A stretch of 64,000 nucleotides of DNA from positions 1 through 64,000 of the forward strand of contig JAJXTH010000004.1 of NCBI GenBank assembly GCA_021783995.1. The letters run 5' to 3'. Made by a program: the position numbers and the translations under genes. This document shows, one piece after another, positions 28,826-44,018 of this stretch (positions are counted from its first letter, which is position 1; each line of letters starts with the position of its first letter). Source of the DNA: Pseudomonadota bacterium. Lineage in GTDB: Bacteria; Pseudomonadota; Gammaproteobacteria; Burkholderiales; Gallionellaceae. Below the pieces are notes generated by a model. The model was not told where the DNA came from and did not search any database. It saw only the letters and a list, made by a program, of their open reading frames with translations.

Positions 28826-29407
28826 ATGAAGCTTGGAGAGAAGATCCTTTTTGGCGTAATTGGCCTGCTTTTTCTGGTTACGATAGTCAGCTTTTTCATG
28901 CTGGAATCCATCAGACATCATTCGGCCAAGCCACTGTTTCCCATATTGACGCATTACGAATTTTCACCTGAGGGCGAGAAGGGTTATGCCGTCTATCAGC
29001 AAAGGGGATGCTACGAATGCCATCATGCTGTTGGCAGCGGCACCAGCATGGGCGTAAGCCTGGATGGCATGGGCTCGAAGCATGATGCCGAGTATTTCTA
29101 CAATTTCCTGAAGAATCCAGAAAAGACCTACGGTGCGAAGACGCTGGATCATGGAGCGCCTCCCAAGGATGCGGCTTATGTGTCCGAGCTTCCTGATAGC
29201 GAACTGCACTCGATGGCGGTTTTTGTTTCCGAATTGAAAGCCGATCAGGGGTCGTCCTCGTCGTACGAGCCGCCCGAGGAGCAATCGAGCTTCGTCGATG
29301 CGATGGTGCAGATGTGGACGCCGGCGGGATGGAAGCAGAGTTTCACGGATATACGCGAATGGATGAAGAATAATCCGAAAGAGGATCAGAATGGCGCAAA
29401 GCATTGA
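28826..29407 (+). CDS. Membrane-anchored monoheme cytochrome c lacking a Met ligand motif
   Basis: A 193-residue protein with an N-terminal anchor helix (about 8-27) and one heme motif CYECH at 62-66. It aligns with the cytochrome at 37344 from MKxGEK through LDGxGS to the C-terminal ELK. Where that protein has the axial-ligand motif YRMPSY, this one has DHGAPPKDAAY with no Met. The sixth heme ligand may therefore be His or absent. A C-terminal extension of about 50 residues is unique. It is the first gene of a five-gene unit and overlaps the next by 17 bases. Confidence 0.85.
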   Translation: MKLGEKILFGVIGLLFLVTIVSFFMLESIRHHSAKPLFPILTHYEFSPEGEKGYAVYQQRGCYECHHAVGSGTSMGVSLDGMGSKHDAEYFYNFLKNPEKTYGAKTLDHGAPPKDAAYVSELPDSELHSMAVFVSELKADQGSSSSYEPPEEQSSFVDAMVQMWTPAGWKQSFTDIREWMKNNPKEDQNGAKH

Positions 29408-29909
29408 ACATACACCCGCAGAGGCTGCGGAATACAGGAAATACGTAATCTGGTTCGTATACGCCTGCATCATATACAGCATCGTGGGTTTTTCCTGGGG
29501 GGCGATCATGGGCGGCATCCCAGCCTACAGGCATTTTGTCGATTACAGCGCTCACGGCAGGCTGATCACCCTTGCTCATGGCCACATCAATCTCCTGGGT
29601 TGGGTCGAAATGGCGATATTCGCCTCGCTCTATCATGTCGTGCCAACGGTTTCAAGCAGGCAGATATACAGCCTAAAGCTGGTCAAGGTGCATTTCTGGA
29701 TGCACAACTTCGGTCTGCTGGGTATGGTTGTCTTCTTCCTTACGGCGGGCCTCGCGGGTGGCCTGATCGAAGGGCCTGATGCTGAGAAAATGGTCAACAG
29801 CTTTATGGCATTGGTTGGCATATTCGGTATTCTGGTGCTGACGGCAAACATCATATGGGGCTACAACCTTTACAAGACGACCAAATGCGGATGGCAGCGG
29901 CCAAAATGA
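29391..29909 (+). CDS. Four-helix mini subunit I of heme-copper oxidase fold (copy 1)
   Basis: A 172-residue integral membrane protein with four helices, near residues 19-41, 59-82, 98-120 and 130-158. The second helix starts LAHGHINLLGW, with His63 and His65 in the HxH spacing of the heme ligands in CcoN/NorB helix X. The third starts VHFWMHNFG, as in the helix after it. It is one third of a normal 12-helix subunit I and has neither the HH copper pair nor the cross-linked Tyr. Heme b binding is likely; catalysis alone is not. It may be an assembly factor or a novel heme protein. Confidence 0.75.
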   Translation: MAQSIEHTPAEAAEYRKYVIWFVYACIIYSIVGFSWGAIMGGIPAYRHFVDYSAHGRLITLAHGHINLLGWVEMAIFASLYHVVPTVSSRQIYSLKLVKVHFWMHNFGLLGMVVFFLTAGLAGGLIEGPDAEKMVNSFMALVGIFGILVLTANIIWGYNLYKTTKCGWQRPK

Positions 29910-30394
29910 AAAACGCATGGATGATCGGTGCGCTGATGCTGGGCCTCGTCACGGGCTGCGGTGAGCAGCGCCTGTCATCGGGCTTCAATGTCGGCACCAA
30001 GGCGCCCAGTCTTCCAACCAAAACCCTGGCAGACGTCGGCGGAAATCTCAGCAAGCTCACGACATACAGGCAGCCCGACCCAAGGATGTACCAGTACTCG
30101 ATAGACAAGGCATTGCTGGCAGGCAAGCCCATCGTTCTCGAGTTTGCAACGCCAGGGCATTGCACGAACTGCGATCAGCAGCTCCAGATGCTGCAGGGCA
30201 TGCTGGAAAAATATCAGGATCAGATCATATTCATACACATAGACCAGTATGAAAACCCGCAAGCCTACAAGGCCTACAATGTGATGGGGGATCCCTGGAC
30301 CTTCATCATAGACAAGCAGGGCATAGTGCGATTCGAGCAGGCAGGACGCATGCTCACGGGCGAAATGGATCAGGCCCTCAAGGTGATTCTGTAG
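29906..30394 (+). CDS. Thioredoxin-like lipoprotein with CTNC motif
   Basis: A 162-residue lipoprotein. The signal peptide ends in the lipobox LVTGC near residue 21. The thioredoxin fold carries FATPGHCTNCDQQLQML, a CxxC active site, and the cis-Pro loop MGDPWTFIIDKQG. It may act on copper or heme-site cysteines of the adjacent oxidase-like proteins; this is inference from context. The start ATG at 29906 overlaps the mini subunit I stop (ATGA), indicating translational coupling. Confidence 0.78.
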   Translation: MKNAWMIGALMLGLVTGCGEQRLSSGFNVGTKAPSLPTKTLADVGGNLSKLTTYRQPDPRMYQYSIDKALLAGKPIVLEFATPGHCTNCDQQLQMLQGMLEKYQDQIIFIHIDQYENPQAYKAYNVMGDPWTFIIDKQGIVRFEQAGRMLTGEMDQALKVIL

Positions 30395-30399: not shown

Positions 30400-30864
30400 A
30401 TGGAAAAGACCGTAAGATTTGATCTGGTTGAGGATCGGAGGGGGATGATGTGGGACCTCCTTCTTTATGTACCTACCGTTGTCGCACTTGCCTTGATCTC
30501 GGCCAGCCTCTGGTATGGTAATGAGCATAACGCGAGCTACCTTTTCTTCTTTCTGACCTGTTTCTTCTTCATCGCAGGATTCAATCGCATTTTCAAGACC
30601 AGGCTGATGCTGCTGCCTGGCGCCCCAGTTGCGCTGTTGCTGGGCAAGGAAGGCGTGGTTGTCGTTCAGAAGAACGGCGTTCAACTCAATCTTGTAAAGA
30701 ATCTCAGGTACTTTCCGGACTATGCGAACAAGTCGTTCGGGATGTCAGGGCAGGAAGGGACGGGAAAGTTGATGCAGTTCGTATTTCACAAGGGGCAGTT
30801 TGCGAGCGAGGACAAGTTTTCCTCAGCACGTGATGCGCTCAAAGGGCAGTGCCAGCCGAAGTGA
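30400..30864 (+). CDS. Two-helix membrane protein, unknown
   Basis: A 154-residue protein with two adjacent helices (about 18-38 and 45-63) separated by NEHNAS, then a soluble C-terminal part with LLGKEGVVVVQKNGVQLNL. The topology of two helices plus a beta-rich tail resembles bacterial PH-domain membrane proteins, but the similarity is too weak for a call. It lies 5 bases after the thioredoxin-like gene and 43 before the YtkA-like lipoprotein, inside the respiratory unit. Confidence 0.6.
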   Translation: MEKTVRFDLVEDRRGMMWDLLLYVPTVVALALISASLWYGNEHNASYLFFFLTCFFFIAGFNRIFKTRLMLLPGAPVALLLGKEGVVVVQKNGVQLNLVKNLRYFPDYANKSFGMSGQEGTGKLMQFVFHKGQFASEDKFSSARDALKGQCQPK

Positions 30865-30907: not shown

Positions 30908-31291
30908 ATGAAAAAAATAATATTGTTGTTAGGTCTTGCAGGACTCATTTCTGCGTGCAACTCGGGTTCCCAGCGCATCTCGATACCCCCGCAACACTGG
31001 AAGGATGTGGATGTCAGAATAGAAACGCATCCCAATCCGCCTCAAGCCGGCATGTCGGATGTGGTTGTCATCGCCACAGGCCCGCGAGGATTGCCTGTTT
31101 CGGATCTGACGGTATATCTGCGAGGGGAAGAGTCCATGCCATGGGTGCAGGCGATACAGGATGGATTCATAGGCGTATACCGTCGTGCAACAGATCTGGG
31201 CGATAAGCAGCAGGCTGAGATCAGGGTGAAGATACAACAGGGAAATGCAGAAACCGTGCTGAAATTCCCCGTCATGCTGTCGACAGATTAG
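30908..31291 (+). CDS. FixH/YtkA-like lipoprotein
   Basis: A 127-residue secreted lipoprotein with lipobox LISAC near residue 17. The mature part is a single beta-sandwich with NPPQAGMSDVVVIATGP and a GVYRRATDL stretch, reminiscent of YtkA/FixH-type domains. FixH (CcoH) proteins help cbb3 oxidase assembly, but this one is a lipoprotein rather than a single-helix protein, so the call is tentative. The 3' end overlaps the convergent mini subunit I gene by 4 bases. Confidence 0.6.
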   Translation: MKKIILLLGLAGLISACNSGSQRISIPPQHWKDVDVRIETHPNPPQAGMSDVVVIATGPRGLPVSDLTVYLRGEESMPWVQAIQDGFIGVYRRATDLGDKQQAEIRVKIQQGNAETVLKFPVMLSTD

Positions 31292-32841: not shown

Positions 32842-32872
32842 GCAAAATCTTCGACTAAGTCGAGAATTTTGC
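32842..32872 (+). promoter_or_regulatory. Leader hairpin upstream of the cbb3-like operon
   Basis: GCAAAATCTTCGACT and AGTCGAGAATTTTGC pair over 15 positions with two mismatches around a short loop, followed by GGGTTTTGTGG. It lies in the predicted leader and could act as an attenuator or mRNA stabiliser. The T-tract is imperfect, so full termination is doubtful. Confidence 0.5.
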
Positions 32873-32942
32873 TGGGTTTTGTGGTTTGGGTGGTGTGGCC
32901 GAGAGTTGCTTTGTTTTAATAATTAATAGCATGGGGGGGTAC

Positions 32943-33224
32943 ATGAGTACGAAAAAGCCTGTAAAACTTCGATCGTTTTGGTTGATCCTGATCGGCGGCA
33001 TGCTGACGGGCATGGGTAATGGAAGTGTGTTCGGCGCAACGCTGATGTGCCTTATGGGTCGCGGCAATTTTTCAAACTGGGGTGGCATGAATGGAACGGC
33101 TTACGATCCTGCAACGTTTACCGGTTTTATCGACTGGGCGATGATCGTGTTCGGGGTTGCGTTCTGTCTGATCATGATCGTTGCACTGGGTCGTCACGAA
33201 AAATTGGAACAGGCTGCGGCTTAA
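32943..33224 (+). CDS. Two-helix membrane protein, first gene of the cbb3-like cluster
   Basis: A 93-residue protein with two helices (about 11-36 and 62-82) joined by a Gly/Asn-rich loop with RGNFSNWGGMNG. A run of seven G residues before the ATG at 32943 is the ribosome-binding site. I do not recognise the family. Its fixed position as first gene of the operon, followed by a peptide and the catalytic subunit, suggests a structural or assembly subunit of the oxidase. Confidence 0.65.
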   Translation: MSTKKPVKLRSFWLILIGGMLTGMGNGSVFGATLMCLMGRGNFSNWGGMNGTAYDPATFTGFIDWAMIVFGVAFCLIMIVALGRHEKLEQAAA

Positions 33225-33271
33225 GGCCGTATTCTGACAATTTCATTTTGAATCTTGGAGGGGGATAGGCT

Positions 33272-33382
33272 ATGGCTATGATTGCTGGATCATTGGGCGT
33301 GCTGCTTGCTTTTTCTAGCATGTTGCTTTCGTGGTATATCTTGATACCGCATGAAAAGAAAAACGGTACCGATCAACATTAG
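33272..33382 (+). CDS. 36-residue single-helix membrane peptide 3
   Basis: A short frame with GGAGGGGG upstream, starting MAMIAGSLGVLLAFSSMLLS and ending in a hydrophilic tail NGTDQH. One helix, about residues 3-24. It lies 30 bases before the catalytic subunit gene. Its size and topology match CcoQ-like or CcoM-like peptides of cbb3 oxidases, though sequence identity cannot be judged. Confidence 0.7.
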   Translation: MAMIAGSLGVLLAFSSMLLSWYILIPHEKKNGTDQH

Positions 33383-33412
33383 TTTGTTTTTTGTGAAATA
33401 AGGGGGTAGCAC

Positions 33413-34819
33413 ATGTTTAAGTATCTAATGGCAAGGAACGAGGATATTCCACCAGGTGCATCGGCGGTATTCTTCGGTTTTTCAGCAATTATCTGGTTTG
33501 TCATCGGCACGGGTCTGGGTTCATTCAATGCGGCCAAGCTCGCGTTTCCCGATTTTGTGACGGGTGACATGTATTTTGCATTCGGCCATATGCGTCAGGT
33601 GCATGTGATGGCGGTTATCTTCGGGTGGATATCGATGGCCTTTGCAATGGCCATGATGTACATCACGCCGGCGCTTGGCAACAACAAGCTCTGGTCTGAA
33701 AAACTGGGCGTCTGGAACTGCATGCTGTGGAACATCGGCCTGCTGGTCGCTCTGACTACGCTGTGGGCTGGTATCACATCGGGTCGTGAGTATTCGGACT
33801 TCCCCTGGCCTGTCGATCTGTATCTCGCGACCTGCGTGTTCATCCCATTGGGCGTGAATGTGTGGATGACGATAGTGAACCGCCGCACTCAGGGTATCTA
33901 TACCACGAACTGGTTCTTCGCTGCTGCGACCTTCATGGTCATCATCGTGTTCCTGGTGGGCAACTCTCCCGAGTTCTTTCATCTGACCGGGCTGACTGAA
34001 GCCTATCTGACATGGTGGTTCGCCCACAACGTGCTGGGTCTGTGGATCACGCCTGTTGCTGCGGCTATCGCCTACTACACGATCCCGAAGATCACGGGCA
34101 ATCCGCTGTATTCGCACCGCATCGGTCACCTGCACTTCTGGTCAGTTGTGGTGTTCTACTCGACGCCGGCTGCACACCATCTGATGTCCGCACCGCTGCC
34201 CGAATGGCTGAAGTCCTTCGCATCGGTCGAGGGTGTGCTGATCCTTGTTCCTGCGATCGCCTTCGTGTCCAACATCATGCTGACGATGAAGGGCAAGTGG
34301 CATATGTTCGTCGAGAACGTCGAGGTTCGCTTTACGATCACGGGCTGCCTGATGGCGATTCCGTTGAACATGCAGGGCGGTTTCCAGCAGACTCGCGCGA
34401 TCAACTGGTACATTCATGGCACCGGCTGGATTGTTGCGCACGCTCATCTGGCGCTCCTGGGTTTCTCGACCTTCCTTGAGGCTGCTGCCGTGTATCTTGG
34501 CCTGCAAACCTTGATGAACCGCAAGCTTTATTCTCTGAAGCTCGCAAACATGCACTTCTGGCTCCTGCTCGTCGGCTTCACGACCTACTGGGTCTCGATG
34601 ACGATCGCGGGTCTGATCCAGGGCGCTGGCAAGATTTACGAAGTTCCCTACATCGATGTGGTCATTGCTGAACATCCCTACATGATCGCGCGTTGGCTCG
34701 GAGGTACCCTGGTATTCTTCGGCAATACACTGTGGCTTTACAACATGTGGATGACTGCCAGAAAAGGCACGGTAATCCCCGCAGGCCGCATGCCTCATGA
34801 GCTGCAGTACGAGCGTTGA
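33413..34819 (+). CDS. Divergent C-family (cbb3-like) heme-copper oxidase subunit I
   Basis: A 468-residue 12-helix catalytic subunit. Predicted ligands: His64 (low-spin heme, VHVMAVIFGW), His205 (copper, WWFAHNVLG), His255-His256 (copper, PAAHHL), Tyr249 six residues before the His pair as in the cbb3 cross-link, His343 and His345 (AHAHLALLG) for the high-spin and low-spin hemes. The residue four after His205 is Gly, not the Glu of NO reductases, so an oxygen reductase is expected. The preceding YIHGTGWIVAHAHLA stretch is nonetheless NorB-like. AAGGGGG lies before the start. Confidence 0.9.
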   Translation: MFKYLMARNEDIPPGASAVFFGFSAIIWFVIGTGLGSFNAAKLAFPDFVTGDMYFAFGHMRQVHVMAVIFGWISMAFAMAMMYITPALGNNKLWSEKLGVWNCMLWNIGLLVALTTLWAGITSGREYSDFPWPVDLYLATCVFIPLGVNVWMTIVNRRTQGIYTTNWFFAAATFMVIIVFLVGNSPEFFHLTGLTEAYLTWWFAHNVLGLWITPVAAAIAYYTIPKITGNPLYSHRIGHLHFWSVVVFYSTPAAHHLMSAPLPEWLKSFASVEGVLILVPAIAFVSNIMLTMKGKWHMFVENVEVRFTITGCLMAIPLNMQGGFQQTRAINWYIHGTGWIVAHAHLALLGFSTFLEAAAVYLGLQTLMNRKLYSLKLANMHFWLLLVGFTTYWVSMTIAGLIQGAGKIYEVPYIDVVIAEHPYMIARWLGGTLVFFGNTLWLYNMWMTARKGTVIPAGRMPHELQYER

Positions 34820-34842
34820 TATAATAAATAGGGAGATCAAGC

Positions 34843-35799
34843 ATGGCTGGATTTAGAGAGTATAAGATCGGTGCGAGGATATTCGGCCTCGCGCTGAGCG
34901 GTTCGATGTCGATCACGCTGTTCTTTCCAAGCATCAATATTGCGTCGACCGCGTCGACCGATATGGCGCTTGCCAAACAGCTGGCTGTCGGGCACGAGAC
35001 CGGGTTCAATCTGGACGACCCGTTTCTGAAGGGCAAGAACAAGCCCCTAGTCGTGAGCCTGAAGGCCGACCCAAAGACGGGCCAGCCTCTGGCTCAGCAG
35101 CAGACGGTGTTTGTCTACAATGCGGGTACGACATTTCCTGCCGGCATCCTTCATCCGAGGATACTCGGAACGGGTGTCGAGGAGCTGAGCGTTCAGCAGG
35201 GCCACATCGAAGATGCGCGCAAAGATGCGGGTGCGGTTTTTGCGATCAACAAGGCTGTCTATCAGGGCAAGCAAGTCAGCTACATCGAGGATCTGACGAC
35301 GATCAAGGGCTGGACTCCGGATGACGTGATGAAGGTTGCCAAGGATGAGGATGTCTCTCATGCGGGTGCTGGCAAGACGATGTTCGTTCGCGAAGGATGC
35401 TGGTGGTGCCACACCCTGTTGCCTGAAGAGACTCAGGACTGGCAGGTGTTCGGTGCGCCTCCTATGCAGGGTGACTTCAACGGAGAATCTCCAACCGCTT
35501 TCGGCTCGGACAGAAAGGCGCCTGACCTGCTGCATGTCGGATCGCGAAATTCCTCCAGGGAGTGGATGATGATGCACTTCTTCAATCCACGCCTGGTGCA
35601 ACCGCACTCCATCATGCCGCGTTTCGATTACCTGTGGGGCGAGAAAGATGCCTCGGGCAACACGATCGACTACGCGAAATGGCGTTCGGAATACAACGAT
35701 TATCGTGAAGGCAAGCGTGTAACTCCACCCGAAGTGCCTAGCTATGCTAGCAATTCGGAAATCCGTAGTCTGATCGACTTCATGTTGAGTCTTAAGTAA
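34843..35799 (+). CDS. CcoO-like membrane-anchored monoheme cytochrome c subunit
   Basis: A 318-residue subunit with an N-terminal anchor helix (about 11-33), a heme motif CWWCH at 186-190 in FVREGCWWCHTLL, and an axial Met at 258 in HSIMPRF. The CcoO pattern is clear: KAPDLLHVGSRNSSREWMM corresponds to the GPDLxRVGxRYSDDWH region. It is about 100 residues longer than usual CcoO because of an insertion between anchor and heme domain. It follows the catalytic subunit by 23 bases and is expected to pass electrons to it. Confidence 0.87.
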   Translation: MAGFREYKIGARIFGLALSGSMSITLFFPSINIASTASTDMALAKQLAVGHETGFNLDDPFLKGKNKPLVVSLKADPKTGQPLAQQQTVFVYNAGTTFPAGILHPRILGTGVEELSVQQGHIEDARKDAGAVFAINKAVYQGKQVSYIEDLTTIKGWTPDDVMKVAKDEDVSHAGAGKTMFVREGCWWCHTLLPEETQDWQVFGAPPMQGDFNGESPTAFGSDRKAPDLLHVGSRNSSREWMMMHFFNPRLVQPHSIMPRFDYLWGEKDASGNTIDYAKWRSEYNDYREGKRVTPPEVPSYASNSEIRSLIDFMLSLK

Positions 35800-35811
35800 G
35801 GGGGGATGGAT

Positions 35812-36450
35812 ATGGCTTGGAACTTTGAAAAACCGCTGGTAACGATGGTCGATCCGGCAACAAACGAAGCCGACAAGAGGCTCTGGGAAAAGGAAGACCT
35901 GGGTGGAATCACCGAAGACAACAACCGCATGCCCATGCCGGTCGTGCTTCTGGTGGTGCTGACTGTGTTGACGGCTTTCGCTGTCACCTTCCCGCTCTGG
36001 GGGCAGCGTCCGACTGCATCGCTTTATGCCGGCTACATCAAGTCGATGGACGATCCTCATGTCAAGGCGATCACAAACGACGACGATGCGATGAAGATGA
36101 TCGTCCAGTTGAACAAGGCATCCGGCACGCTGGACGGTCGTTCAATGGAAGACATGCTTGAGCGTCATCCGATAAGTATGAACGATCTGCGCATCATCAA
36201 GCCACAGATGGAGGCATTGATGGCGAGCGGTGTAGATCTGGGCGAATATGAAGTCGTGGGCGACCAGGTGGTGCTGGCAAACTTCCAGGGCAACCTGAAA
36301 GCAGATGGCACGATCGAGCGCAAGCAGCCATGGTGGGACAAGGGCTACACGATAGACATCTTCTATCTGACCTATTTCTTCACCATGGTGATCGTGATGA
36401 TCAAGCGTCTGCCTCCTTCAACATGGCAGCCTAGACACAACGTTCATTAA
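35812..36450 (+). CDS. Two-helix membrane subunit with FPLWGQRP motif, unknown
   Basis: A 212-residue protein with a hydrophilic N-terminus, a helix near 43-61 ending in FPLWGQRP, an extracytoplasmic domain of about 120 residues (rich in Asp, Met and Lys, no heme motif) and a second helix near 180-200. The first helix and the FPxWGxRP motif recur in the 134-residue protein at 44029, which lacks the middle domain. It occupies the place where CcoQ/CcoP would be expected. The ATG at 35812 is preferred over one at 35806 on ribosome-site spacing. Confidence 0.72.
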   Translation: MAWNFEKPLVTMVDPATNEADKRLWEKEDLGGITEDNNRMPMPVVLLVVLTVLTAFAVTFPLWGQRPTASLYAGYIKSMDDPHVKAITNDDDAMKMIVQLNKASGTLDGRSMEDMLERHPISMNDLRIIKPQMEALMASGVDLGEYEVVGDQVVLANFQGNLKADGTIERKQPWWDKGYTIDIFYLTYFFTMVIVMIKRLPPSTWQPRHNVH

Positions 36451-36502
36451 TGAAGCCCGGGGTTCCGGTTTAAGCCGGAACCCTCAAGATTAGGAGAGTC
36501 AT

Positions 36503-36610
36503 ATGATTGAGTTAGATAATGGTCCTTTGGTGCTTGGCTGCCTGTGTCTGGTTGCCTTGTCGTTTCCGGTCTTTTACAGTCTGTTCATAGATCGCAACAA
36601 AAGGGATTAA
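36503..36610 (+). CDS. 35-residue single-helix membrane peptide 4
   Basis: A short frame preceded by TAGGAGAG, starting MIELDNGPLVLGCLCLVALS, with one helix (about 8-28) and a tail ending DRNKRD. It is 52 bases after the FPLWG subunit gene and is followed by a terminator. Its charge distribution and size match the other three peptides in the island. Confidence 0.7.
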   Translation: MIELDNGPLVLGCLCLVALSFPVFYSLFIDRNKRD

Positions 36611-36646
36611 TGTTTACGGCCGGTTAGTCCGCGGCCATTCCAAACA

Positions 36647-36679
36647 AACAAATGCGCGCCAGGATTGGGCGCATTTGTT
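36647..36679 (+). terminator. Rho-independent terminator-like hairpin
   Basis: AACAAATGCGC and GCGCATTTGTT form an 11-bp perfect stem with an 11-base loop, followed by CTTTC. It splits the oxidase core genes (32943-36610) from the accessory genes starting at 36783. The T-tract is short, so partial read-through is possible. Confidence 0.75.
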
Positions 36680-36782
36680 CTTTCAAAACTGTTGCTCGCG
36701 TGAGGCTGTTGCAGCCGCAAGCACCCTATCCGCATAGGAGCGCACGATTCGATTTTATTCAATTCTTGGCAGCATTCCGGCA

Positions 36783-37046
36783 GTGCAGGCAAGCTCGGAG
36801 ATTTCACCCAAGCTCGATCTAAGCATCGAAGGCATGCGCAGTCATCAGTTCAGCGAATGGGTGTTCGTGTTCCTGCTGGTCGGTATCGTCGTGTTTTCCG
36901 GGATTGTATTCGCGCTGATGTTCAACTACAGCCGCAAGGAAAATCTGAGAACCGGAGAAAGATGGATGCTTGCCGCCATCATTCTTGGTATAGTTGCAGC
37001 CGTGATCATAGGTGCAATGCAGATGCTCGCGGGCTACCTTTTCTGA
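36783..37046 (+). CDS. Two-helix membrane protein, unknown
   Basis: An 87-residue protein with helices near 27-48 and 61-86, ending AGYLF at the C-terminus. The start is the GTG at 36783; an ATG at 36834 would remove 17 residues but has the worse ribosome-binding distance. I do not recognise the family. It begins the accessory unit after the terminator and lies 22 bases before the CcoS-like gene. Confidence 0.6.
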   Translation: MQASSEISPKLDLSIEGMRSHQFSEWVFVFLLVGIVVFSGIVFALMFNYSRKENLRTGERWMLAAIILGIVAAVIIGAMQMLAGYLF

Positions 37047-37068
37047 AACAATTTACTGGTGAATAAAG

Positions 37069-37347
37069 ATGGCTAATTTTATTGAAAACCTACCCGATGG
37101 CTGGACCATCTATCTTTGGCTCATCATAGGTGCGATGATCATCGTTGCGGTGATGTACTGGATACGCTGGGGAATGAAGAACGAACAGTTCAACGAGGAT
37201 ATCAAGTATGTGATGTTCGACGAGAACGACAAGGACAAGATGGATCCGGCGGAATATGCCAAGAGCCGAGAAGTGATCAAGGCGCAGATAGAAAGCAGGA
37301 ACCGCCACCTCGCTCAGGAAGATGCAAAGCGCAAGAACTCGGCATGA
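37069..37347 (+). CDS. CcoS-like oxidase maturation protein
   Basis: A 92-residue protein with one helix (about 13-33), then IRWGMKNEQFNEDIKYVMFDENDKD. This corresponds to the CcoS pattern of a helix, GQFDDLE and a D-rich stretch, with an added charged C-terminal tail. CcoS is needed for heme and copper insertion into cbb3 oxidases. The similarity is weak but the context is right. The stop codon overlaps the following start (ATGA). Confidence 0.55.
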   Translation: MANFIENLPDGWTIYLWLIIGAMIIVAVMYWIRWGMKNEQFNEDIKYVMFDENDKDKMDPAEYAKSREVIKAQIESRNRHLAQEDAKRKNSA

Positions 37348-37826
37348 AGGCGGGTGAAAAGTTCGTACTGGGCTCGATTGCGGCCATACTTGTGTTCAGT
37401 GTCGCAAGGTCCTTGCTTCATGTGAAGCAGGATCATGAGCGCGACATACCTTACTACAGCACGGCGAGCCGCGAAGTGGCAGAGAGAGCGAATGAAATCT
37501 ATCGCGCCAATGGCTGCAAGGAATGCCATTCTCTTTGGACCATGAAGGACATGATGGAATCCGTGCCTGCGCCGATTCTTGATGGCATCGGTTCCATTAG
37601 AGACGAAGCATGGCTTTATGGTTACCTCTCCTCGGAAAATCCCCAGTCCATACTGCCTAGCCGACTGAAGAAGGAATACAGGATGCCATCCTATGCAGGC
37701 CTGCCACAGGAAGACAGGCGCGTGCTCGCAGAATATCTGGCGAGCCTCAAGGTCAAGGATTGGTATCTCGAGCAGACCAGGAAGGCAGAGTACGAGAAGC
37801 TGACGGGGAAGGAGTACAAGAAATGA
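37344..37826 (+). CDS. Membrane-anchored monoheme cytochrome c
   Basis: A 160-residue protein with an N-terminal anchor helix (about 6-24), a heme motif CKECH at 58-62 and an axial-ligand motif EYRMPSY with Met114. It is a paralogue of the cytochrome at 28826. It replaces, in function, part of the diheme CcoP missing from the cluster, possibly as the electron entry subunit. Overlapping ATGA junctions on both sides show tight coupling with the CcoS-like and the following membrane gene. Confidence 0.87.
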   Translation: MKAGEKFVLGSIAAILVFSVARSLLHVKQDHERDIPYYSTASREVAERANEIYRANGCKECHSLWTMKDMMESVPAPILDGIGSIRDEAWLYGYLSSENPQSILPSRLKKEYRMPSYAGLPQEDRRVLAEYLASLKVKDWYLEQTRKAEYEKLTGKEYKK

Positions 37827-38272
37827 ACCAAAGATATCTTACGGGTCTGTTTGCGTTGATGACTGGTGTGCTGGTCAACTATTTCGGCGACAGGCTGCTG
37901 GGCGTCAAGATGGAGCTTTTTTCCGGGCTGTCCACCTTCAGCTTCAGATGGATGCTGGATGTTTTTGTTTTGCCGCTGCTAGTCGGTCTTCTGATGGCCT
38001 GGATATTCGGGAAGGGGGCGAAATGGCTCTGTTATTTCCCGCCGCTGATCGTGCGCTGTTTCAGCTATGCGCAAATACTTTATGTGACGGGCGTGCCTCA
38101 AGGCAGCATCCTGAACCCGATGGGATGGTGGGGGCTGTATGTGATACTTGCGATGGAATCGGCGGGAATAGGCGGTATACTGGGCGAGGTCATGATCAAG
38201 AATATCTACGGCCGTTCGTACATGCTGTCTGATGCAGTGAATGAAGAAGTGATGCTGGAAAAGGAATCCTGA
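37823..38272 (+). CDS. Polytopic membrane protein, unknown
   Basis: A 149-residue protein with about four hydrophobic segments (near 5-25, 44-62, 70-90 and 102-124) and a hydrophilic C-terminus. WGLYVILAMESAGIGGILGE in the last segment contains a membrane-buried Glu. No family recognised. Its coding junctions with the cytochrome before and the FGE-like gene after overlap by 4 and 1 bases, so it belongs to the same translational unit. Confidence 0.65.
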   Translation: MNQRYLTGLFALMTGVLVNYFGDRLLGVKMELFSGLSTFSFRWMLDVFVLPLLVGLLMAWIFGKGAKWLCYFPPLIVRCFSYAQILYVTGVPQGSILNPMGWWGLYVILAMESAGIGGILGEVMIKNIYGRSYMLSDAVNEEVMLEKES

Positions 38273-39327
38273 TGTCGGAAAGAAAAGCACCTGTTCTGAC
38301 AGAAGCAGAGCGTCAGAAAAGAAAGCGCTATCTGTCAGCCACGTTGATCACCTGTATTGCGCTGGGGATGATCGGTGGAAGCCTGCATGTTGTGAAGCTC
38401 GGCTCTTTGAGGATGAGCGAGATGCGCGGCATGGCGACCTATAACCTCAAGGAGGAATCTGCTCACATACGCGCGGCAGGCGAAGACATCGCGCTTCATG
38501 AGGAAAATGAAAAGCGGGTGGATGAATCGCCGGGCTACACGGTGGCTCAGGCAGATGCGTTGCTGACCAAGGATCAGTGGAAGGAGCTCGACAGCACCGT
38601 GCTCATTCCAGCGGGAAAATTCGAGATGGGCACGGACCTGAAGAATGCGGACGCACCGTCGCATCCCATGCATGCCGTGTATCTGAATGCCTATCGCATA
38701 GACAAGTATCTGGTCACGAATGCGCAGTATGCAAGGTTTATCGCGGCCACGGGACATCGCCCGCCACTGGACTGGAAGAATGGCAAGCCGCTGAAAGGGA
38801 CGCTGCTTTTGCCCGTCACGCTGGTCAACTGGTATGATGCAGCTGCTTACGCGAAATGGGCAGGCAAGAGGCTTCCAACAGAAGCGGAGTGGGAAAAGGC
38901 GGCGAGAGGAACGGATGGCAGGCGCTGGCCGTGGGGAAACGAGATGGATCCGACGAGGTTGAATACCTATTACAACGTGGGATCGGCCAGCATGGTGACG
39001 ACCTACGACAAGGGTGTCAGCCCCTATGGCGTCTATGACATGGCGGGAAACGTGGATGAGTGGACGGAGAGCGACTTCGTGCCATACAACGGAACGGATG
39101 CGGATGCCGAGGTTTTCAAGGCCAAGGTGGCAAAGGTGGAAAGCGCAGAGGATCGCGCATTGAAGGTGGCCGATCTGGTGCATGTCAACCGGATGTACAA
39201 GGTCCTGCGTGGTGGCTCATGGAAGGGAGACCCATTTTCTACCGCGACCTATCACAGGGATTTCGCACTGCCGAATCTGGCTTCAGACTTTTACGGATTC
39301 CGCTGTGCTTCAGACGTTAAAATGTAA
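38272..39327 (+). CDS. Membrane-anchored FGE/SUMF1-like protein
   Basis: A 351-residue protein with an N-terminal helix (about 22-41) and an FGE-like domain (about 105-350). The fold signatures are IPAGKFEMGTD, VNWYDAAAYAKWAGKRLPTEAEWEKAARG, YDMAGNVDEWTES, VLRGGSWKG and a final GFRCA. The catalytic copper-binding Cys pair of true formylglycine-generating enzymes is not visible, so it is probably a binding or structural relative, like NirV in denitrifiers. Presumably it faces the periplasm and associates with the oxidase. Confidence 0.8.
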   Translation: MSERKAPVLTEAERQKRKRYLSATLITCIALGMIGGSLHVVKLGSLRMSEMRGMATYNLKEESAHIRAAGEDIALHEENEKRVDESPGYTVAQADALLTKDQWKELDSTVLIPAGKFEMGTDLKNADAPSHPMHAVYLNAYRIDKYLVTNAQYARFIAATGHRPPLDWKNGKPLKGTLLLPVTLVNWYDAAAYAKWAGKRLPTEAEWEKAARGTDGRRWPWGNEMDPTRLNTYYNVGSASMVTTYDKGVSPYGVYDMAGNVDEWTESDFVPYNGTDADAEVFKAKVAKVESAEDRALKVADLVHVNRMYKVLRGGSWKGDPFSTATYHRDFALPNLASDFYGFRCASDVKM

Positions 39328-39345
39328 CTGCTTCATCGGAGGTGC

Positions 39346-39591
39346 ATGATGTTCAAGTTGTCAATTAATACAGGGTTGCTTGCGATGCTCGCATCCACGT
39401 CCGCCGAGGCGGCGGTCGACAGCTACCGCTTCACTCATGTGACCATAGCAACTCCCTGGTATATCTTCATCTTTCTTTTGATGGGCGTCTTCGCTCCGTT
39501 CATATTGATGGTCGTGCTGGCCTGGCGGGTTGCGATGAGAAAATCGAGCAGTCCGGCATCCGATGTCGCCCATAAACCCATAGCAGAATGA
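39346..39591 (+). CDS. Small membrane protein with signal-like N-terminus
   Basis: An 81-residue protein. The first ~20 residues resemble a signal peptide (ending SAEAA). A second hydrophobic helix lies near 38-62 (WYIFIFLLMGVFAPFILMVV), followed by a basic cytosolic tail. GGAGGT precedes the ATG. Unknown family. It overlaps the next gene by four bases, continuing the operon. Confidence 0.6.
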   Translation: MMFKLSINTGLLAMLASTSAEAAVDSYRFTHVTIATPWYIFIFLLMGVFAPFILMVVLAWRVAMRKSSSPASDVAHKPIAE

Positions 39592-39983
39592 GAACTATGT
39601 CACGTACCCTGAATACATTTTCCAGCTGGTTTTCCTTTCGTTTCTTCGGAATGCTGCTCGTTGTCATGTGCTCTTCAATGAACCTTGCGCATGCCGAGGA
39701 GATCTCGACCGGAGATGACAGCGCGCACATTCTGCAGGCCTTCAACAAGCAGCACAGGGATGAAGAGCATGAAAAGTCCATACCGCAGAAGGAAAAGCAG
39801 CAGATCATGTTTCTGATGGGGGTCGTGCTGTTCGTTCTGGTGCTGATAACCGGCGCCCTGGGGCTTGCGATGGGACTCTACGGCAAGCAGGTCTATGTGC
39901 AGCACATGCTTTTTGCTGGGCTTAGCGTGTCCATGGCCATCGCCCATGCCATCGTGGGTCTCGTGTGGTTTTATCCTTTCTAG
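39588..39983 (+). CDS. Small membrane protein, unknown
   Basis: A 131-residue protein with a signal peptide (about 1-36, ending NLAHAEE), a charged periplasmic stretch with FNKQHRDEEHEKS, and two helices near 72-92 and 105-127. The last helix holds two His (AHAIVGLVWF). It is the last gene of the accessory unit. A start at 39597 (MSRTLN) is also possible. Confidence 0.6.
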   Translation: MRTMSRTLNTFSSWFSFRFFGMLLVVMCSSMNLAHAEEISTGDDSAHILQAFNKQHRDEEHEKSIPQKEKQQIMFLMGVVLFVLVLITGALGLAMGLYGKQVYVQHMLFAGLSVSMAIAHAIVGLVWFYPF

Positions 39984-40031
39984 CCTGTCCGCGTAACATT
40001 TCATGATATCGCGCGATCGCAGCAGGGCCGC

Positions 40032-42668
40032 ATGGCTAGCCTCTTTGCCGCAGAATACCCGGTGAATCCAGAAGACGCAGCATCCTGCACCGATGTGACA
40101 GTGCCGTGGTGGCGTGGTGCGGCGGCCCTTTACGGTGTTTCGGGATTCGTAAGCCTGGCCTATGAGGTGCTGTGGTCGCGGATGCTCTCCATGCAGTTCG
40201 GCGTCAGCATCTTTGGCGTGGTGCTCACCGTCGCGGCCTTCATGGTGGGGTTGGGAGGAGGCAGCCTCGCGGGCGTGAAATGGGCCAGGTTGGTGCAGAG
40301 GCCGCTCGCCGCATTGGGGGTGGTGGAAATCGCCATAGCGCTGTATGCGCTGCTGCTGCCGTCCCTGTTGCACTGGACCAGCTTGTGGCAGGTATCGGAC
40401 CGGCTAACGCTTGTGCAATGGTATCTTTTGCAGGCGACGGAATCGCTGGCTCTGCTTCTGCTTCCGGCCTTTGGCATGGGAGTCGGTTTCGCGTTGATCA
40501 TGAGGGCGGTGGATCGCACTCCGCTGTCGCTTTCGAAATTATACGGCTTCAACACGATAGGCGGCGCTTTGGGTGCGCTGTTTCCGCTCTGGAGCTTGCC
40601 GGTACTGGGGTGGATTGGTTCGGTCAGGATCGTTGCATTGCTGGGGTTCGCGGCGGGTAGTACTGCGCTGATTATTTCGAGATATTCGAGATCAGCTGCA
40701 TCCGGTTCTCTCGGCGCATCACGCCCGCCCATGTCGGCACTGCTGCTTTATGCGGGTATAGGCGCAGGCAGCCTGATGCTCGAAGTGGGCTGGGTGCGCA
40801 TTTATGGCATGATCATGCTGCGCACGGAGTATGTGCTGGGCGTCATGCTTGCCGTCTTTCTTGCCGGCATGGCGCTTGGCAGTCTGCTGGTTCCCCGCAG
40901 ACACTGGATAGCCGTGCTTCTGCCTTTGATTGCGGGAGGCGGCGTGCTGTTGGGCCTTTGGCTCTTGCCTTCTGCATCAGCCTGGGTGGAAGGCAGCCAG
41001 TTCAGCTCGTTCTTTGGCGCGATCAGCGCAGAAGCGATGATCGCGGCTTTGTTCACGCTGCCTGTCACGCTGGTTCTGGGCGCGTGGCTGCCGTTGCTTG
41101 CAGAGCGCCACGGCAATGCCGATGCAGGCGGCATATGGTTTTATGGCGCAAACAGCCTGGGCGGAGGATTGGGGGCCTTGCTTGGCTGCCTCGTGATCAT
41201 TCCGGTATTCGGCAGCGTTGCGATGGTCGTCATCGCGGGCCTTGCGATTTCCGCATTCGGACTTGCGGGCATCAGATCGAGATGGGGATGGGCTGGCTTT
41301 GTCCTGCTTCTGCTGCTGGCCTGGCCTTTGCGCAACATGCCTCCGGTGAGCAAGCTGCTGCCTATCGCAGAAGGAGGCAGCCGCGATCTTTATCTGTACG
41401 AGGATGCGGTCTCGCTCACGCATGTTGTTCGCCACAAGGACGGACAGCGCATACTGCTGACCGATCTGCAGCGCATGGACGCATCGAGCGATCCTGCTGC
41501 GGTTGAGATACAGATGGACCAGGCAAGGCTTGCGCTGCTTCTGCATCCCTCTCCTCGCAGTGTGCTGTTCCTGGGGCTGGGGACGGGAATTTCCATGGCG
41601 GGTTCTGCACCTTTCCCTGAACTCGACCGCAGTGCGGTGGAGTTGTCTCAGGGCGCAATTAATGCCGCCAGCCGCTGGTTTTCCGAGGTGAACGGCAACA
41701 TCCTGGACCATGCGAGCATATATCGCGACGATGCGAGACATTATCTCAATGCCTCAGACAGGCGCTACGACGTGATCATAGGGGACCTGTTCCATCCCGA
41801 TCTCGCAGGCATGGGTTCGCTCTTGTCAGTGCAGCAGTTTGAGCGCGCGAGGCAGCATTTGAACGTTGATGGCCTTTTCGTGCAGTGGCTTGCCTTGAAC
41901 CAGTTCGACATTCGCTCGCTAGGCGTCGTTCTGCATAGCTTCAAGCAGGTATTTCCCGATGCACAGATGTTCATGGACGGCATGCACCTTGCGCTGGTCG
42001 GCCCAAGGAAACCTTACTCCATCGCCGGTGCGATGCAGCGCAATCTTATGAGGATAAAGGAAGAGGGTCCGGCGACAGGAAATGAGGGGATGTGGACGTG
42101 GCTCGGGCGCTACTGGGGCCCTGTTCCTGATATCAATGGTCCTGTCCAGGATGAATGGGTACCCTATATCGAATACAGCCTGCCGCGCGCGCGCTATGAC
42201 GGGAGCGTGAATCTTGCGAACCTGATGTCCTGGCTGATGAGGCGTCATCCGGAGGTCGATGCTGCTTCGGACATGTTGGGGGTTGCCGCGCATGACAGGG
42301 GGGCATTCGGCCGCGCCTACATGGCAGCCACGCTGACCGCTGAATCCTGGATATCGGCCATCAGGGGGGATGAGTCAAAGTCGGTGCAGATGATCTGGAT
42401 GGCATATCAGGCGAATCCGCATGACCACTGGATTGCCAATGCGCTAGCTGATAGTATGATGCAGTCGCTGACGCAAGCGCGCGAGCATGGTTTGAGCGAG
42501 CGCGAGGCCTTGCAGCGTGTGCTTAAGATATCTCCCGATCATCTGGGCGCGCTGCGCGCAATGTGGCAGCTGGAGAAGGCTGCAGGCAACCTGCATGAGG
42601 CAGAACAGTACAGGCTCAAGCTGCTTGCGGCAGCCCCACTGGATGCAGAGGCGAAGAGCGCATTGTGA
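40032..42668 (+). CDS. Fused polytopic membrane / spermidine-synthase-like protein
   Basis: An 878-residue protein. The N-terminal ~430 residues form about 12 helices of the type seen in fused MFS/spermidine-synthase proteins. About 450-680 is a Rossmann-like domain with a SAM-type loop LFLGLGTGIS, then VIIGDLFHPDLAGMGSLLS. The last ~200 residues look helical and repeat-like. Homologous fusions are common but of unknown biochemical role, and polyamine synthesis is not established. Its place between the oxidase accessory genes and ccoG makes a respiratory or envelope role plausible. Confidence 0.78.
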   Translation: MASLFAAEYPVNPEDAASCTDVTVPWWRGAAALYGVSGFVSLAYEVLWSRMLSMQFGVSIFGVVLTVAAFMVGLGGGSLAGVKWARLVQRPLAALGVVEIAIALYALLLPSLLHWTSLWQVSDRLTLVQWYLLQATESLALLLLPAFGMGVGFALIMRAVDRTPLSLSKLYGFNTIGGALGALFPLWSLPVLGWIGSVRIVALLGFAAGSTALIISRYSRSAASGSLGASRPPMSALLLYAGIGAGSLMLEVGWVRIYGMIMLRTEYVLGVMLAVFLAGMALGSLLVPRRHWIAVLLPLIAGGGVLLGLWLLPSASAWVEGSQFSSFFGAISAEAMIAALFTLPVTLVLGAWLPLLAERHGNADAGGIWFYGANSLGGGLGALLGCLVIIPVFGSVAMVVIAGLAISAFGLAGIRSRWGWAGFVLLLLLAWPLRNMPPVSKLLPIAEGGSRDLYLYEDAVSLTHVVRHKDGQRILLTDLQRMDASSDPAAVEIQMDQARLALLLHPSPRSVLFLGLGTGISMAGSAPFPELDRSAVELSQGAINAASRWFSEVNGNILDHASIYRDDARHYLNASDRRYDVIIGDLFHPDLAGMGSLLSVQQFERARQHLNVDGLFVQWLALNQFDIRSLGVVLHSFKQVFPDAQMFMDGMHLALVGPRKPYSIAGAMQRNLMRIKEEGPATGNEGMWTWLGRYWGPVPDINGPVQDEWVPYIEYSLPRARYDGSVNLANLMSWLMRRHPEVDAASDMLGVAAHDRGAFGRAYMAATLTAESWISAIRGDESKSVQMIWMAYQANPHDHWIANALADSMMQSLTQAREHGLSEREALQRVLKISPDHLGALRAMWQLEKAAGNLHEAEQYRLKLLAAAPLDAEAKSAL

Positions 42669-42701: not shown

Positions 42702-44018
42702 ATGTCATCAGCGATGAACAAGACGCTTTCCAGCATACCTGTGAAGGTCGTCAACGGCGGATCCAAAAAAAGTATGAACAATTTCCGCTGGAAACGGCGC
42801 GCCGTCCAGATCGTTTTTCTGATATTGCTCGTGCTGATTCCGGTGTCGGGGCTTTTCAGGATAGATCCTGAAAACGGCGCGTTGGTGGTACTGGGGTGGC
42901 AGGTGTGGTTTTCAGACTTCTTCCTGATAACAGGGTTATGGATCACGCTGGCAAGCTTCCTGGTCGCGCTGTATTCGACTGCAGGCACCGTGTTCTGCGG
43001 CTGGGCCTGCCCGCAGAATTCGATGGCGGAGTGGGCCAACCACATGACCCGAAAGCTGCTGGGCAAGCGCGCCGAGATCAGCCTGAACGGCGATGCACTC
43101 AAGGTCGCGGCGGCCAAGAATACCGCGCTCAACTGGACCCTGCTTGCGCTTTCTCTCGTGGGCGTCTCCATGCTGTTCGCGCTGCTGCCCCTGCTCTATT
43201 TCTACCCGCCGGATGTGGTGCTCTCCTTTGTCCTGTTCAGGGACGATCCCAGGCTGGCGGGTTCGTTGCACTGGATCTATTTCGTGTGGGTCCTGATCAT
43301 TCTGCTCGACGTTTCGGTGCTGAGGCATTTCTGGTGCCGTTTCGCCTGCGTGTACAGGGTGTGGCAGCATTCTTTCAAGACCAAGGAAACGCTGCACGTG
43401 CTCTATGACGAGAGCCGGTCGGCAGAATGCGAGAAATGCAATTTCTGCGTGACGACCTGCTTCATCGAGCTTGATCCGCGCAAGACCATGATCTATGACA
43501 GCTGCATCAACTGCGGTGACTGCATAGACGCCTGCAACGCGCTGCATGCGAAGAAGGGTGGGGTGGGCCTCCTGCGTTTCGAATTCGGCGAGCGGGCAAA
43601 AACAAGGCTGGGCAAGTTCAGGGACAACTCCATGGCTCTACTGTCCAGGCTGCGCTGGACCACGCCATTTGCGGTGCTTGGCATCGCGATGTTTGCCTGG
43701 GGCGTGTGGTCTTATCAGCCCTACCATATTTCTGCCGGGTATCTGCAGACCGGGCACAGCCAGTCGGCGCGGGACTATCGAATCGAGATCGCCAACAAGC
43801 GCTATCGCCCTGCAGAGCTGGATGTTGCGGTGGAAGGCCTGCCTGCTGGAAGCTTTAGGTTGAGCAGCAGCCAGGTGGATCTGCCGACGGTCGGAAGGGC
43901 GTCGGTGTTTCTTACGATGTCGCCGGCACTTCCGCGTGGTCTGCATCCCTTTACGGTTGTGGTTCATTCGCGCGATGGTTGGGTCGGGCGTTTTGAATTG
44001 CAGCATTTTGTCGATTAG
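42702..44018 (+). CDS. ccoG: CcoG-type iron-sulfur membrane protein
   Basis: A 438-residue membrane Fe-S protein of the CcoG/RdxA/FixG family. CcoG reduces Cu(II) during copper delivery to cbb3 oxidases. About five helices are spread over residues 32-230 and 320-340, with FCGWACPQN in the second loop. Two ferredoxin-like cysteine sets follow: CEKCNFCVTTCF and SCINCGDCIDAC. The C-terminal periplasmic Ig-like domain is present. Its presence supports assembly of a copper-containing oxidase from this region. Confidence 0.92.
   Translation: MSSAMNKTLSSIPVKVVNGGSKKSMNNFRWKRRAVQIVFLILLVLIPVSGLFRIDPENGALVVLGWQVWFSDFFLITGLWITLASFLVALYSTAGTVFCGWACPQNSMAEWANHMTRKLLGKRAEISLNGDALKVAAAKNTALNWTLLALSLVGVSMLFALLPLLYFYPPDVVLSFVLFRDDPRLAGSLHWIYFVWVLIILLDVSVLRHFWCRFACVYRVWQHSFKTKETLHVLYDESRSAECEKCNFCVTTCFIELDPRKTMIYDSCINCGDCIDACNALHAKKGGVGLLRFEFGERAKTRLGKFRDNSMALLSRLRWTTPFAVLGIAMFAWGVWSYQPYHISAGYLQTGHSQSARDYRIEIANKRYRPAELDVAVEGLPAGSFRLSSSQVDLPTVGRASVFLTMSPALPRGLHPFTVVVHSRDGWVGRFELQHFVD

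What the first reader, a model, noticed from the sequence alone, without database searches (positions are those of the whole stretch)
32943..39983. Divergent cbb3-like oxidase cluster with a largely unfamiliar subunit set
The core has a CcoN-like subunit with all copper, heme and Tyr residues in place, followed by a long CcoO-like cytochrome. There is no CcoP, CcoQ in the usual form, CcoI or CcoH. Instead there are a two-domain FPLWG subunit, a CcoS-like protein, an anchored monoheme cytochrome, a polytopic protein, an FGE-like protein and two small membrane proteins, many with overlapping codons. This arrangement is unlike known cbb3 operons and may be a separate oxidase type with its own accessory subunits.
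Basis: partly seen in the sequence, partly recalled or inferred. Interest (0 to 1): 0.88.

Follow-up and report, generated by a model that had tools for sequence, protein, structure and literature searches.

The report
CcoP-less oxidase cluster of lithotrophic bacteria
This stretch encodes an unusual oxygen-consuming respiratory enzyme with about twenty partner genes that travel together in iron- and nitrite-oxidizing bacteria; it is a separate branch of a known enzyme family whose accessory parts, including one tiny overlooked gene, appear largely undescribed.

Summary
Window 32943-39983 encodes a C-family (cbb3-like) oxygen reductase with intact heme, CuB and Tyr residues and a long CcoO. 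Its catalytic subunit forms its own clade outside canonical CcoN (28-34% identity to canonical, 68-99% within). All 89 aligned members lack polar residues that 18 canonical CcoN keep on helices VII and IX. The accessory genes are conserved: 14 genes in one order in 50 of 56 loci with enough flank. In three of the six exceptions the second half sits together elsewhere in the genome. The FGE-like gene tracks this oxidase, not canonical cbb3. The unit is larger than reported (about 27.9-44.4 kb). Two corrections: FPLWG looks like a heme-free CcoP remnant (weak FixP_N hits in 26 of 38 members, not the window's own), and a 35-residue membrane protein gene at 36503-36610 was overlooked. Iron-oxidizer papers already separate 'proximal' and 'distal' cbb3; this is probably 'proximal'. 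Searches listed no description of its accessory set. Verdict: new variant of a known kind.

The parts
27916..28716 (+). diheme c4-type cytochrome, likely the soluble electron donor (Cyc1-like; role inferred)
   Evidence: two CXXCH in 59 of 59 homologs; Cytochrom_C in Pfam; somewhere in 47 of 56 loci
28826..29407 (+). membrane-anchored monoheme cytochrome c, paralog of 37344-37826
   Evidence: one CXXCH in 47 of 47; profile match to the other monoheme family P 7.5e-22; 46 of 56 loci
29391..29909 (+). partial CcoN homolog (CcoN C-terminal part, keeps the HxH pair)
   Evidence: PF00115 55.0 bits, positions 311-407; HxH aligned to H345/H347; 38 of 56 loci
29855..30394 (+). thioredoxin-like protein with CxxC, lipoprotein-like N-terminus (by eye)
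   Evidence: AhpC-TSA/Thioredoxin hits; 39 of 56 loci
30400..30864 (+). membrane protein (2 TM by eye) of unknown family
   Evidence: 40 of 56 loci
30908..31291 (+). lipoprotein-like protein; in many relatives it follows FPFWG
   Evidence: 26 of 80 loci; follows FPFWG in L186 and L187
31288..31794 (-). second partial CcoN homolog
   Evidence: PF00115 41.0 bits; 4 of 80 named loci
32943..33224 (+). small membrane protein A (TGMGNGSVFGA motif)
   Evidence: 56 of 56 loci
33413..34819 (+). CcoN-like catalytic subunit
   Evidence: PF00115 259.8 bits; TIGR00780 228.7 bits against cut-off 583.15; tree; residues
34843..35799 (+). CcoO-like monoheme subunit with an extra domain of about 130 residues before the heme
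   Evidence: FixO 63.8 bits; TIGR00781 66.7 against 200.65; model finds no PDB match at E <= 0.001
35806..36450 (+). FPLWG subunit: probable heme-free CcoP derivative
   Evidence: FixP_N at E <= 0.1 in 26 of 38 members (not the window's own), best 9.7e-5, at residues 31-65 in the 8 of 10 members where mapped; no CXXCH in 78 of 78
36459..36484 (+). RNA hairpin right after the FPLWG stop
   Evidence: -20.4 kcal/mol, z -3.2
36503..36610 (+). overlooked 35-residue single-TM protein gene
   Evidence: hydrophobic ORF with a ribosome-site-like motif in 63 of 65 loci, 0 of 65 on the reverse strand; also in another class
36834..37046 (+). small membrane protein B
   Evidence: 56 of 56 loci
37069..37347 (+). 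extended CcoS-like protein
   Evidence: FixS at E <= 0.1 in 37 of 37 members, best 5e-5; window's own 13.5 bits, cut-off 23.1
37344..37826 (+). membrane-anchored monoheme cytochrome c, proposed electron entry subunit
   Evidence: one CXXCH in 73 of 73; 56 of 56 loci
37823..38272 (+). polytopic membrane protein, no known family
   Evidence: 53 of 56 loci; no Pfam hit
38272..39327 (+). FGE-like protein with N-terminal TM, without the catalytic Cys
   Evidence: FGE-sulfatase 187.2 bits; no Cys in the 25 residues after GGSW in 64 of 68, motif not found in 4
39346..39591 (+). small membrane protein C
   Evidence: 53 of 56 loci
39588..39983 (+). small membrane protein D
   Evidence: 53 of 56 loci
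40032..42668 (+). membrane protein fused to a spermidine-synthase-like domain
   Evidence: Spermine_synth 23.9 bits, cut-off 22.9; 53 of 56 loci
42702..44018 (+). CcoG/RdxA-like ferredoxin, copper-center assembly (role inferred)
   Evidence: Fer4_18 and Fer4_5 over cut-off, FixG_C weak (16 bits, cut-off 25.6); 52 of 56 loci
44029..44433 (+). FPFWG protein, probable paralog of the FPLWG N-terminal half
   Evidence: profile match to FPLWG P 1.7e-6 over 54 columns; 51 of 56 loci
44445..45032 (+). SCO1/SenC copper chaperone
   Evidence: SCO1-SenC 146.6 bits; only 3 of 80 named loci, so not a fixed member

Best explanation
The locus encodes a C-family heme-copper oxygen reductase of a lineage separate from canonical cbb3 (most likely the 'proximal' cbb3 of the iron-oxidizer literature). 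Electrons from a periplasmic cytochrome (the c4 diheme protein, Cyc1-like) pass through membrane-anchored monoheme cytochromes to the CcoO heme, then to heme b and the heme b3-CuB site of CcoN, where O2 is reduced to water. CcoP has been reduced to a heme-free anchor with a new periplasmic domain (FPLWG), its role as electron entry being taken by separate monoheme proteins. CcoS- and CcoG-like proteins (and here SCO1) help build the copper site. The second module (polytopic, FGE-like, small C/D, spermidine-synthase-like, CcoG-like, FPFWG) provides accessory or assembly parts that the enzyme needs. Shown: gene set, order, co-occurrence, active-site and channel residues, separate clade. Inferred: O2 as substrate, electron route, heme-free CcoP, role of module 2, altered proton path.
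For: Active-site residues in 89 of 89. Clade support 99/99, the 18 canonical rows 100/100, NorB on a distant branch. Fourteen genes in one order in 50 of 56 loci, and the same order as far as each contig reaches in 6 loci of another class. Three split loci keep module 2 together elsewhere in the genome, one of them up to a contig end. FGE ortholog in 6 of 6 oxidase-bearing and 0 of 55 other genomes, 38 of 42 against 4 of 36 in a second class, with no link to canonical CcoN (P 0.27). FixP_N and FixS matches. Published expression: in Sideroxydans lithotrophicus ES-1 proximal ccoNO rise on Fe(II)-citrate, distal on thiosulfate (PMC8788666, passages).
Against: FixP_N matches stay under Pfam's cut-off in the members mapped, the window's own protein and 11 other members do not match; my CcoP profiles against all frames of the loci favour FPLWG (35 of 51 and 43 of 67 hits), but at E 0.87 or worse; direct hhalign is weak (P 7e-4 and 1.1e-3), in a range that other pairs of small TM families also reach (down to 9e-6). 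No biochemistry was available. Co-occurrence counts are not corrected for shared ancestry. The tree program warned of long branches meeting, and the order of the clades is unresolved. SCO1 sits beside the cluster in only 3 of 80 loci. In ES-1 the distal oxidase was about 3-fold more expressed than the proximal one. The identity with 'proximal' could not be tested because Ducluzeau 2008 is not held.
Confidence: 0.74

Rival explanations
1. It is an ordinary cbb3 oxidase that has diverged; ccoP, ccoQ and ccoI are elsewhere in the genome and the neighbours are unrelated passengers.
For: CcoN and CcoO are recognisable; the genome is a draft, 94.6% complete.
Against: No canonical ccoN and no ccoP over cut-off in the genome; no CcoI N-domain (weak control); neighbours retained in order in 50 of 56 loci and together after splitting.
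Confidence: 0.08
2. It is a nitric oxide reductase-like or other non-oxygen-reducing enzyme.
For: Several canonical channel residues and Glu323 are lost, and NO reductases are relatives of the C family.
Against: The active-site Tyr is kept in 89 of 89 while the 3 NorB have Ser; NorB lies on a distant branch; CcoS- and CcoG-like genes accompany it; the plasmid NorB references sit beside norQD-like genes, and none of the genes listed beside this oxidase is of those families.
Confidence: 0.06
3. It is an oxygen reductase, but FPLWG is unrelated to CcoP and merely shares a short motif before a TM helix.
For: Sub-threshold scores only; FPFWG, with a similar motif, matches FixP_N in just 2 of 26; other pairs of small TM families reach similar or better profile scores.
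Against: FixP_N leads by far (26 of 38, next family 3 of 38) and lies at one position in the 8 of 10 members mapped; FPLWG follows CcoO as CcoP follows in ccoNO(Q)P.
Confidence: 0.28

Closest known systems
Canonical cbb3 oxidase (ccoNOQP, C-type HCO; Pseudomonas stutzeri 3MK7)
   Same: CcoN fold by sequence, six His, Trp203, Tyr251, CcoO monoheme, CcoS- and CcoG-like genes
   Different: 28-34% identity; no diheme CcoP; Y237H, S240G, Y317A, S320L, T321N and E323Q in 89 of 89, S283A in at least 95%; CcoO carries an extra domain; about a dozen extra genes
'Proximal' cbb3 subtree of Ducluzeau 2008 as used for iron oxidizers (PMC7029218, PMC8788666, PMC10734462; passages)
   Same: Second cbb3 type in the same groups of organisms, different subunit composition, Cyc1 homolog beside a cbb3 cluster in ES-1
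   Different: Cannot be compared residue by residue here; in the passages seen these papers name ccoN/ccoO and do not list the accessory genes
cNOR (norCB, plasmid references L163-L165)
   Same: Catalytic subunit beside a small cytochrome c gene
   Different: Tyr251 replaced by Ser in 3 of 3, norQD-like neighbours, distant branch
Third C-family clade (Paraburkholderia fungorum L159, L171, L172, and by the tree L160, L174)
   Same: Also outside canonical CcoN; also Gln for Glu323 in 5 of 5
   Different: Keeps Tyr317 and Ser240 in 5 of 5; in L159 the operon is ccoN-ccoO-cytochrome c-P-type ATPase

Membership tests
Heme-copper oxygen reductase superfamily | PF00115 with the six His ligands | tested here: met
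   259.8 bits, cut-off 34.8; His in 89 of 89
C-type (cbb3) HCO | Cross-link Tyr on helix VII (Tyr-II) | tested here: met
   Y249 = P. stutzeri Y251, 89 of 89
C-type (cbb3) HCO | Alternative K-channel: Tyr-II plus a Ser and a Tyr (PMC3084760, passages) | tested here: inconclusive
   Tyr223 kept in 89 of 89; the Ser, mapped to 283 by residue counting from recalled A-type numbering, is Ala in at least 95%; further polar residues of helices VII/IX are lost
Canonical cbb3 (NCBIfam TIGR00780/00781/00782) | CcoN, CcoO, CcoP over equivalog cut-offs | tested here: not met
   228.7 against 583.15; 66.7 against 200.65; ccoP: best 36.2 bits in the genome, cut-off 179.95
Canonical cbb3 clade | CcoN nested among canonical CcoN | tested here: not met
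   Separate clade, 99/99
Canonical cbb3 | Diheme CcoP subunit | tested here: not met
   No CcoP over cut-off in the genome; FPLWG has no CXXCH in 78 of 78
Canonical cbb3 assembly set | ccoGHIS | tested here: inconclusive
   S-like and G-like present; CcoI N-domain not found, weak control; CcoH not searched
'Proximal' cbb3 (Ducluzeau 2008) | Position in the published proximal subtree | not testable with these tools
   Paper not held
NO reductase (cNOR) | No cross-link Tyr; norCBQD context | tested here: not met
Catalytic FGE (formylglycine-generating enzyme) | Catalytic Cys pair near the C-terminal GGSW region (recalled) | tested here: not met
   No Cys there in 64 of 68; motif not found in 4

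The most novel reading that the evidence does not exclude
A distinct C-family oxygen reductase for lithotrophs that use high-potential electron donors (Fe(II), nitrite): a roughly 20-gene complex in which CcoP lost its hemes, separate monoheme cytochromes feed the enzyme, protons enter by a different path from canonical cbb3, and a two-module accessory set, including a micro-protein and a non-catalytic FGE domain, is obligatory.
Probability: 0.45. Interest if true: 0.8.

Novelty: new variant of a known kind. Interest (0 to 1): 0.66.

Why it matters
The terminal oxidase of Ca. [quoted passage not shown] If this lineage has no heme-bearing CcoP and has lost conserved polar residues of the canonical proton path, such predictions by analogy need testing. 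The fixed gene set gives concrete candidates for unknown respiratory subunits and a genomic marker that separates the two oxidases.

Tried and rejected
Rejected: NO reductase (Tyr present, distant branch); passenger genes; FPFWG as a CcoP relative (2 of 26, other noise-level families more often); the 35-aa protein as a recognisable CcoQ/FixQ (FixQ not among the families listed) or a relative of a solved chain (best E 2.9); catalytic FGE; an RNA family in 27000-46000 (none at gathering score).

Led nowhere: fold comparison of the FPLWG model (mean pLDDT 75, no PDB match at E <= 0.001) and of the CcoO model (same); Pfam on a mixed set of small membrane proteins A-D and the polytopic protein (55 members, scattered weak hits); PDB sequence searches with the FPLWG, CcoS-like and FPFWG profiles (no related chain); direct hhalign of FPLWG and CcoP (weak). 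Not tried: cyc2 or nxr presence in the own genome, a CcoH search, a species-tree correction of co-occurrence. I could not look outside Pseudomonadota except through the one named-genome scan, of which the best 80 of 151 loci are shown.
Full report
OBSERVATION. CcoN-like 33413-34819 matches PF00115 at 259.8 bits, but scores 228.7 against TIGR00780's cut-off of 583.15; CcoO-like scores 66.7 against 200.65. In the own genome (94.6% complete, 54 contigs) PF00115 finds four places: this gene, two partial CcoN-like genes upstream of it, and one full-length gene on contig C31 that sits in a CyoA-CyoB-CyoC-like order, so I read it as a quinol oxidase (type by eye). The best ccoP match scores 36.2 bits, cut-off 179.95.

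A SEPARATE LINEAGE. Homologs fall into two sharply separated classes. In 37 same-genus genomes, 6 carry this type (88-97% identity to the window in the other five), 29 carry a canonical CcoN (31-34%), 2 of these carry both, and 4 have neither full gene. A tree of 51 proteins puts 24 members of this type on one side of a branch (99/99), 18 canonical CcoN on another (100/100), and a third small clade elsewhere. Two further rows I had labelled canonical, L160 and L174, fell with the third clade; both are long branches. One distant Burkholderiales-order row (L175) fell with the three NorB. The program warned of long branches meeting, and the order of the three clades is unresolved. Identity of the 18 canonical rows to the window is 28-33%. 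A sample of 398 genomes of the phylum found 41 further carriers at E <= 1e-72, 68-80% identical in the matched parts, all in three families of another class; three other matches (33-34%) belong to the third clade or were not placed. In that class 42 of 78 genomes carry the type, G207, G261, G264 and G282 only as fragments. Named carriers include Ferrovum myxofaciens, several Ca. Nitrotoga, Ca. Gallionella acididurans, Sideroxydans and Chromatiaceae MAGs (best 80 of 151 shown, 82-99% identity).

RESIDUES. In an alignment of 89 members, 18 canonical, 5 third-clade and 3 NorB sequences (canonical and third-clade sets as sorted by the tree), the six ligand His, Trp203 and Tyr251 (P. stutzeri numbering) are invariant in the new clade. 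Residues invariant in the canonical set along helices VII and IX differ in every member: Y237H, S240G, Y317A, S320L, T321N. E323 (Glu in 15, Asp in 3 of 18) is Gln in 89 of 89, as in 5 of 5 of the third clade. S283 is Ala in at least 95%. The published C-type channel is Tyr-II plus a Ser and a Tyr (PMC3084760, passages); the Tyr near position 223 is kept, and the Ser, if it is 283, is lost. PMC5492636 (passages) cites Muntyan 2015 for a mandatory active-centre Glu of authentic cbb3 and for an 'unknown group'; whether this clade is that group I could not check (paper not held). I infer that the proton path differs; nothing here shows whether it pumps.

THE GENE SET. Of 80 named loci, 56 have at least 9.9 kb after and 1 kb before ccoN. 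In these, small A, ccoN, ccoO, FPLWG, small B, CcoS-like and monoheme occur in 56 of 56; polytopic, FGE-like, small C, small D and the spermidine-synthase-like gene in 53; CcoG-like in 52; FPFWG in 51; all 14 in window order and on one strand in 50. The six exceptions are L070, L074, L080 (split), L093 (small A moved, CcoG and FPFWG on the other strand), L084 and L103 (last genes not seen in the stretch). Six loci from the other class show the same order as far as their contigs reach. In L070, L074 and L080 the second half is missing beside ccoN but is found together at another place in the same genomes: polytopic-FGE-small C-small D-spermidine-synthase-like-CcoG-FPFWG-lipoprotein, in L070's genome only as far as CcoG, where the contig ends. 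In the same three loci the cytochrome module (c4, monoheme, partial CcoN, thioredoxin-like) follows FPLWG with small B inserted.

CO-OCCURRENCE. The FGE-like ortholog is in the same 6 of 61 relatives that carry this oxidase and in no other (best paralog E 3e-46). In the second class it is in 38 of 42 carriers and 4 of 36 non-carriers (Fisher P 4e-13); with canonical CcoN (matches at E <= 1e-50) there is no link (19 of 40 and 23 of 38, P 0.27). The eight discordant genomes are G160, G207, G250, G312 (oxidase only, G207 a fragment) and G187, G267, G321, G327 (FGE only), 57-93% complete. Shared ancestry is not corrected for.

SUBUNIT IDENTITIES. CcoS-like: FixS at E <= 0.1 in 37 of 37 members, best E 5e-5, below Pfam's cut-off in the window's own copy. 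FPLWG: FixP_N (CcoP N-terminal domain) in 26 of 38, best 9.7e-5, next family 3 of 38; the match lies at residues 31-65 in the 8 of 10 members where it was mapped, all below the cut-off; the window's own copy does not match. A reciprocal search of all frames of the loci with two CcoP profiles gave FPLWG 35 of 51 and 43 of 67 hits, but at E 0.87 or worse. FPLWG has no heme motif in 78 of 78. I therefore think CcoP lost its heme domains (about 0.7). The monoheme proteins 37344-37826 and 28826-29407 are paralogs (P 7.5e-22). The FGE-like protein lacks Cys in the C-terminal catalytic stretch in 64 of 68, so it is probably structural. The extra CcoO domain (pLDDT mostly above 85) and the FPLWG model find no match in the PDB at E <= 0.001.

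AN OVERLOOKED GENE. Between FPLWG and small B lie about 360 bases (median of 65). They hold an ORF of mostly 34-47 residues with a ribosome-site-like motif and one hydrophobic segment (consensus MI[DE]xDxGP...PFxYSFF[VI]D) in 63 of 65 loci, and none by the same rule on the reverse strand. With it is found in 74 of 77 named loci that have FPLWG (the other three stretches end close to FPLWG, by their lengths), in the five genus relatives and in 5 of 6 loci of the other class, and in none of the canonical loci held. It has no convincing Pfam or PDB relative; its place and size suggest a CcoQ- or CcoM-like small subunit (comparison recalled). A strong hairpin follows the FPLWG stop and another follows this ORF, so a transcript break before small B is possible.

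KNOWN WORK (passages seen). PMC7029218 and PMC10734462 report proximal and distal cbb3 in Zetaproteobacteria and Gallionellaceae; PMC8788666 reports that ES-1 has both, that they differ in subunit composition, that proximal ccoNO rise on Fe(II)-citrate and distal on thiosulfate, with distal about 3-fold more expressed, and that a Cyc1 homolog sits by a cbb3 cluster; PMC6050957 reports a cbb3 in Ca. Nitrotoga fabula; PMC3179512 reports ccoNOP in Mariprofundus PV-1, not this set. L102 is Ca. Nitrotoga fabula and carries this type, so the oxidase is not iron-specific. Searches for a description of the accessory set or of a CcoP-less cbb3 (15 of 27, 20 of 55, 12 of 24 and 1 of 1 papers listed) showed none; supplements and most subscription papers are not held, nor are Ducluzeau 2008 and the M. 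ferrooxydans proteome paper, Barco 2015.

VERDICT. A real, conserved, lineage-specific oxidase system; a new variant of a known kind, larger than the finding and partly foreseen in the literature.

Noticed in passing
window 29391-29909 and 31288-31794: Two short membrane proteins correspond to the C-terminal part of CcoN only and keep the HxH heme ligand pair; they may be heme b proteins derived from CcoN. The first is widely conserved with the cluster, the second in 4 of 80 named loci plus some relatives.
   Followed up: partly
window 36459-36484 and 36647-36679: Two strong RNA hairpins (-20.4 and -19.4 kcal/mol) flank the 35-aa gene.
   Followed up: partly
window 32213-32431, minus strand: 72-aa protein, charged and helical-looking with a hydrophobic end (by eye), found in only 4 of 80 named loci.
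   Followed up: no
L159 4734-11149 (Paraburkholderia fungorum plasmid): A third C-family oxidase type with operon ccoN-ccoO-cytochrome c-P-type ATPase-molybdopterin oxidoreductase; relatives L171 and L172 by the tree.
   Followed up: partly
L070, L074, L080: Cluster rearranged: CcoS-like and monoheme genes face away from ccoN, and the cytochrome module follows FPLWG with small protein B inserted.
   Followed up: yes
L001 397-3967 (own genome contig C31): Second full-length heme-copper oxidase of this genome in CyoA-CyoB-CyoC-like order, probably a quinol oxidase (by eye).
   Followed up: no
window 40032-42668: 878-aa membrane protein fused to a barely recognisable spermidine synthase domain (23.9 bits); its chemistry in an oxidase cluster is unexplained.
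   Followed up: no
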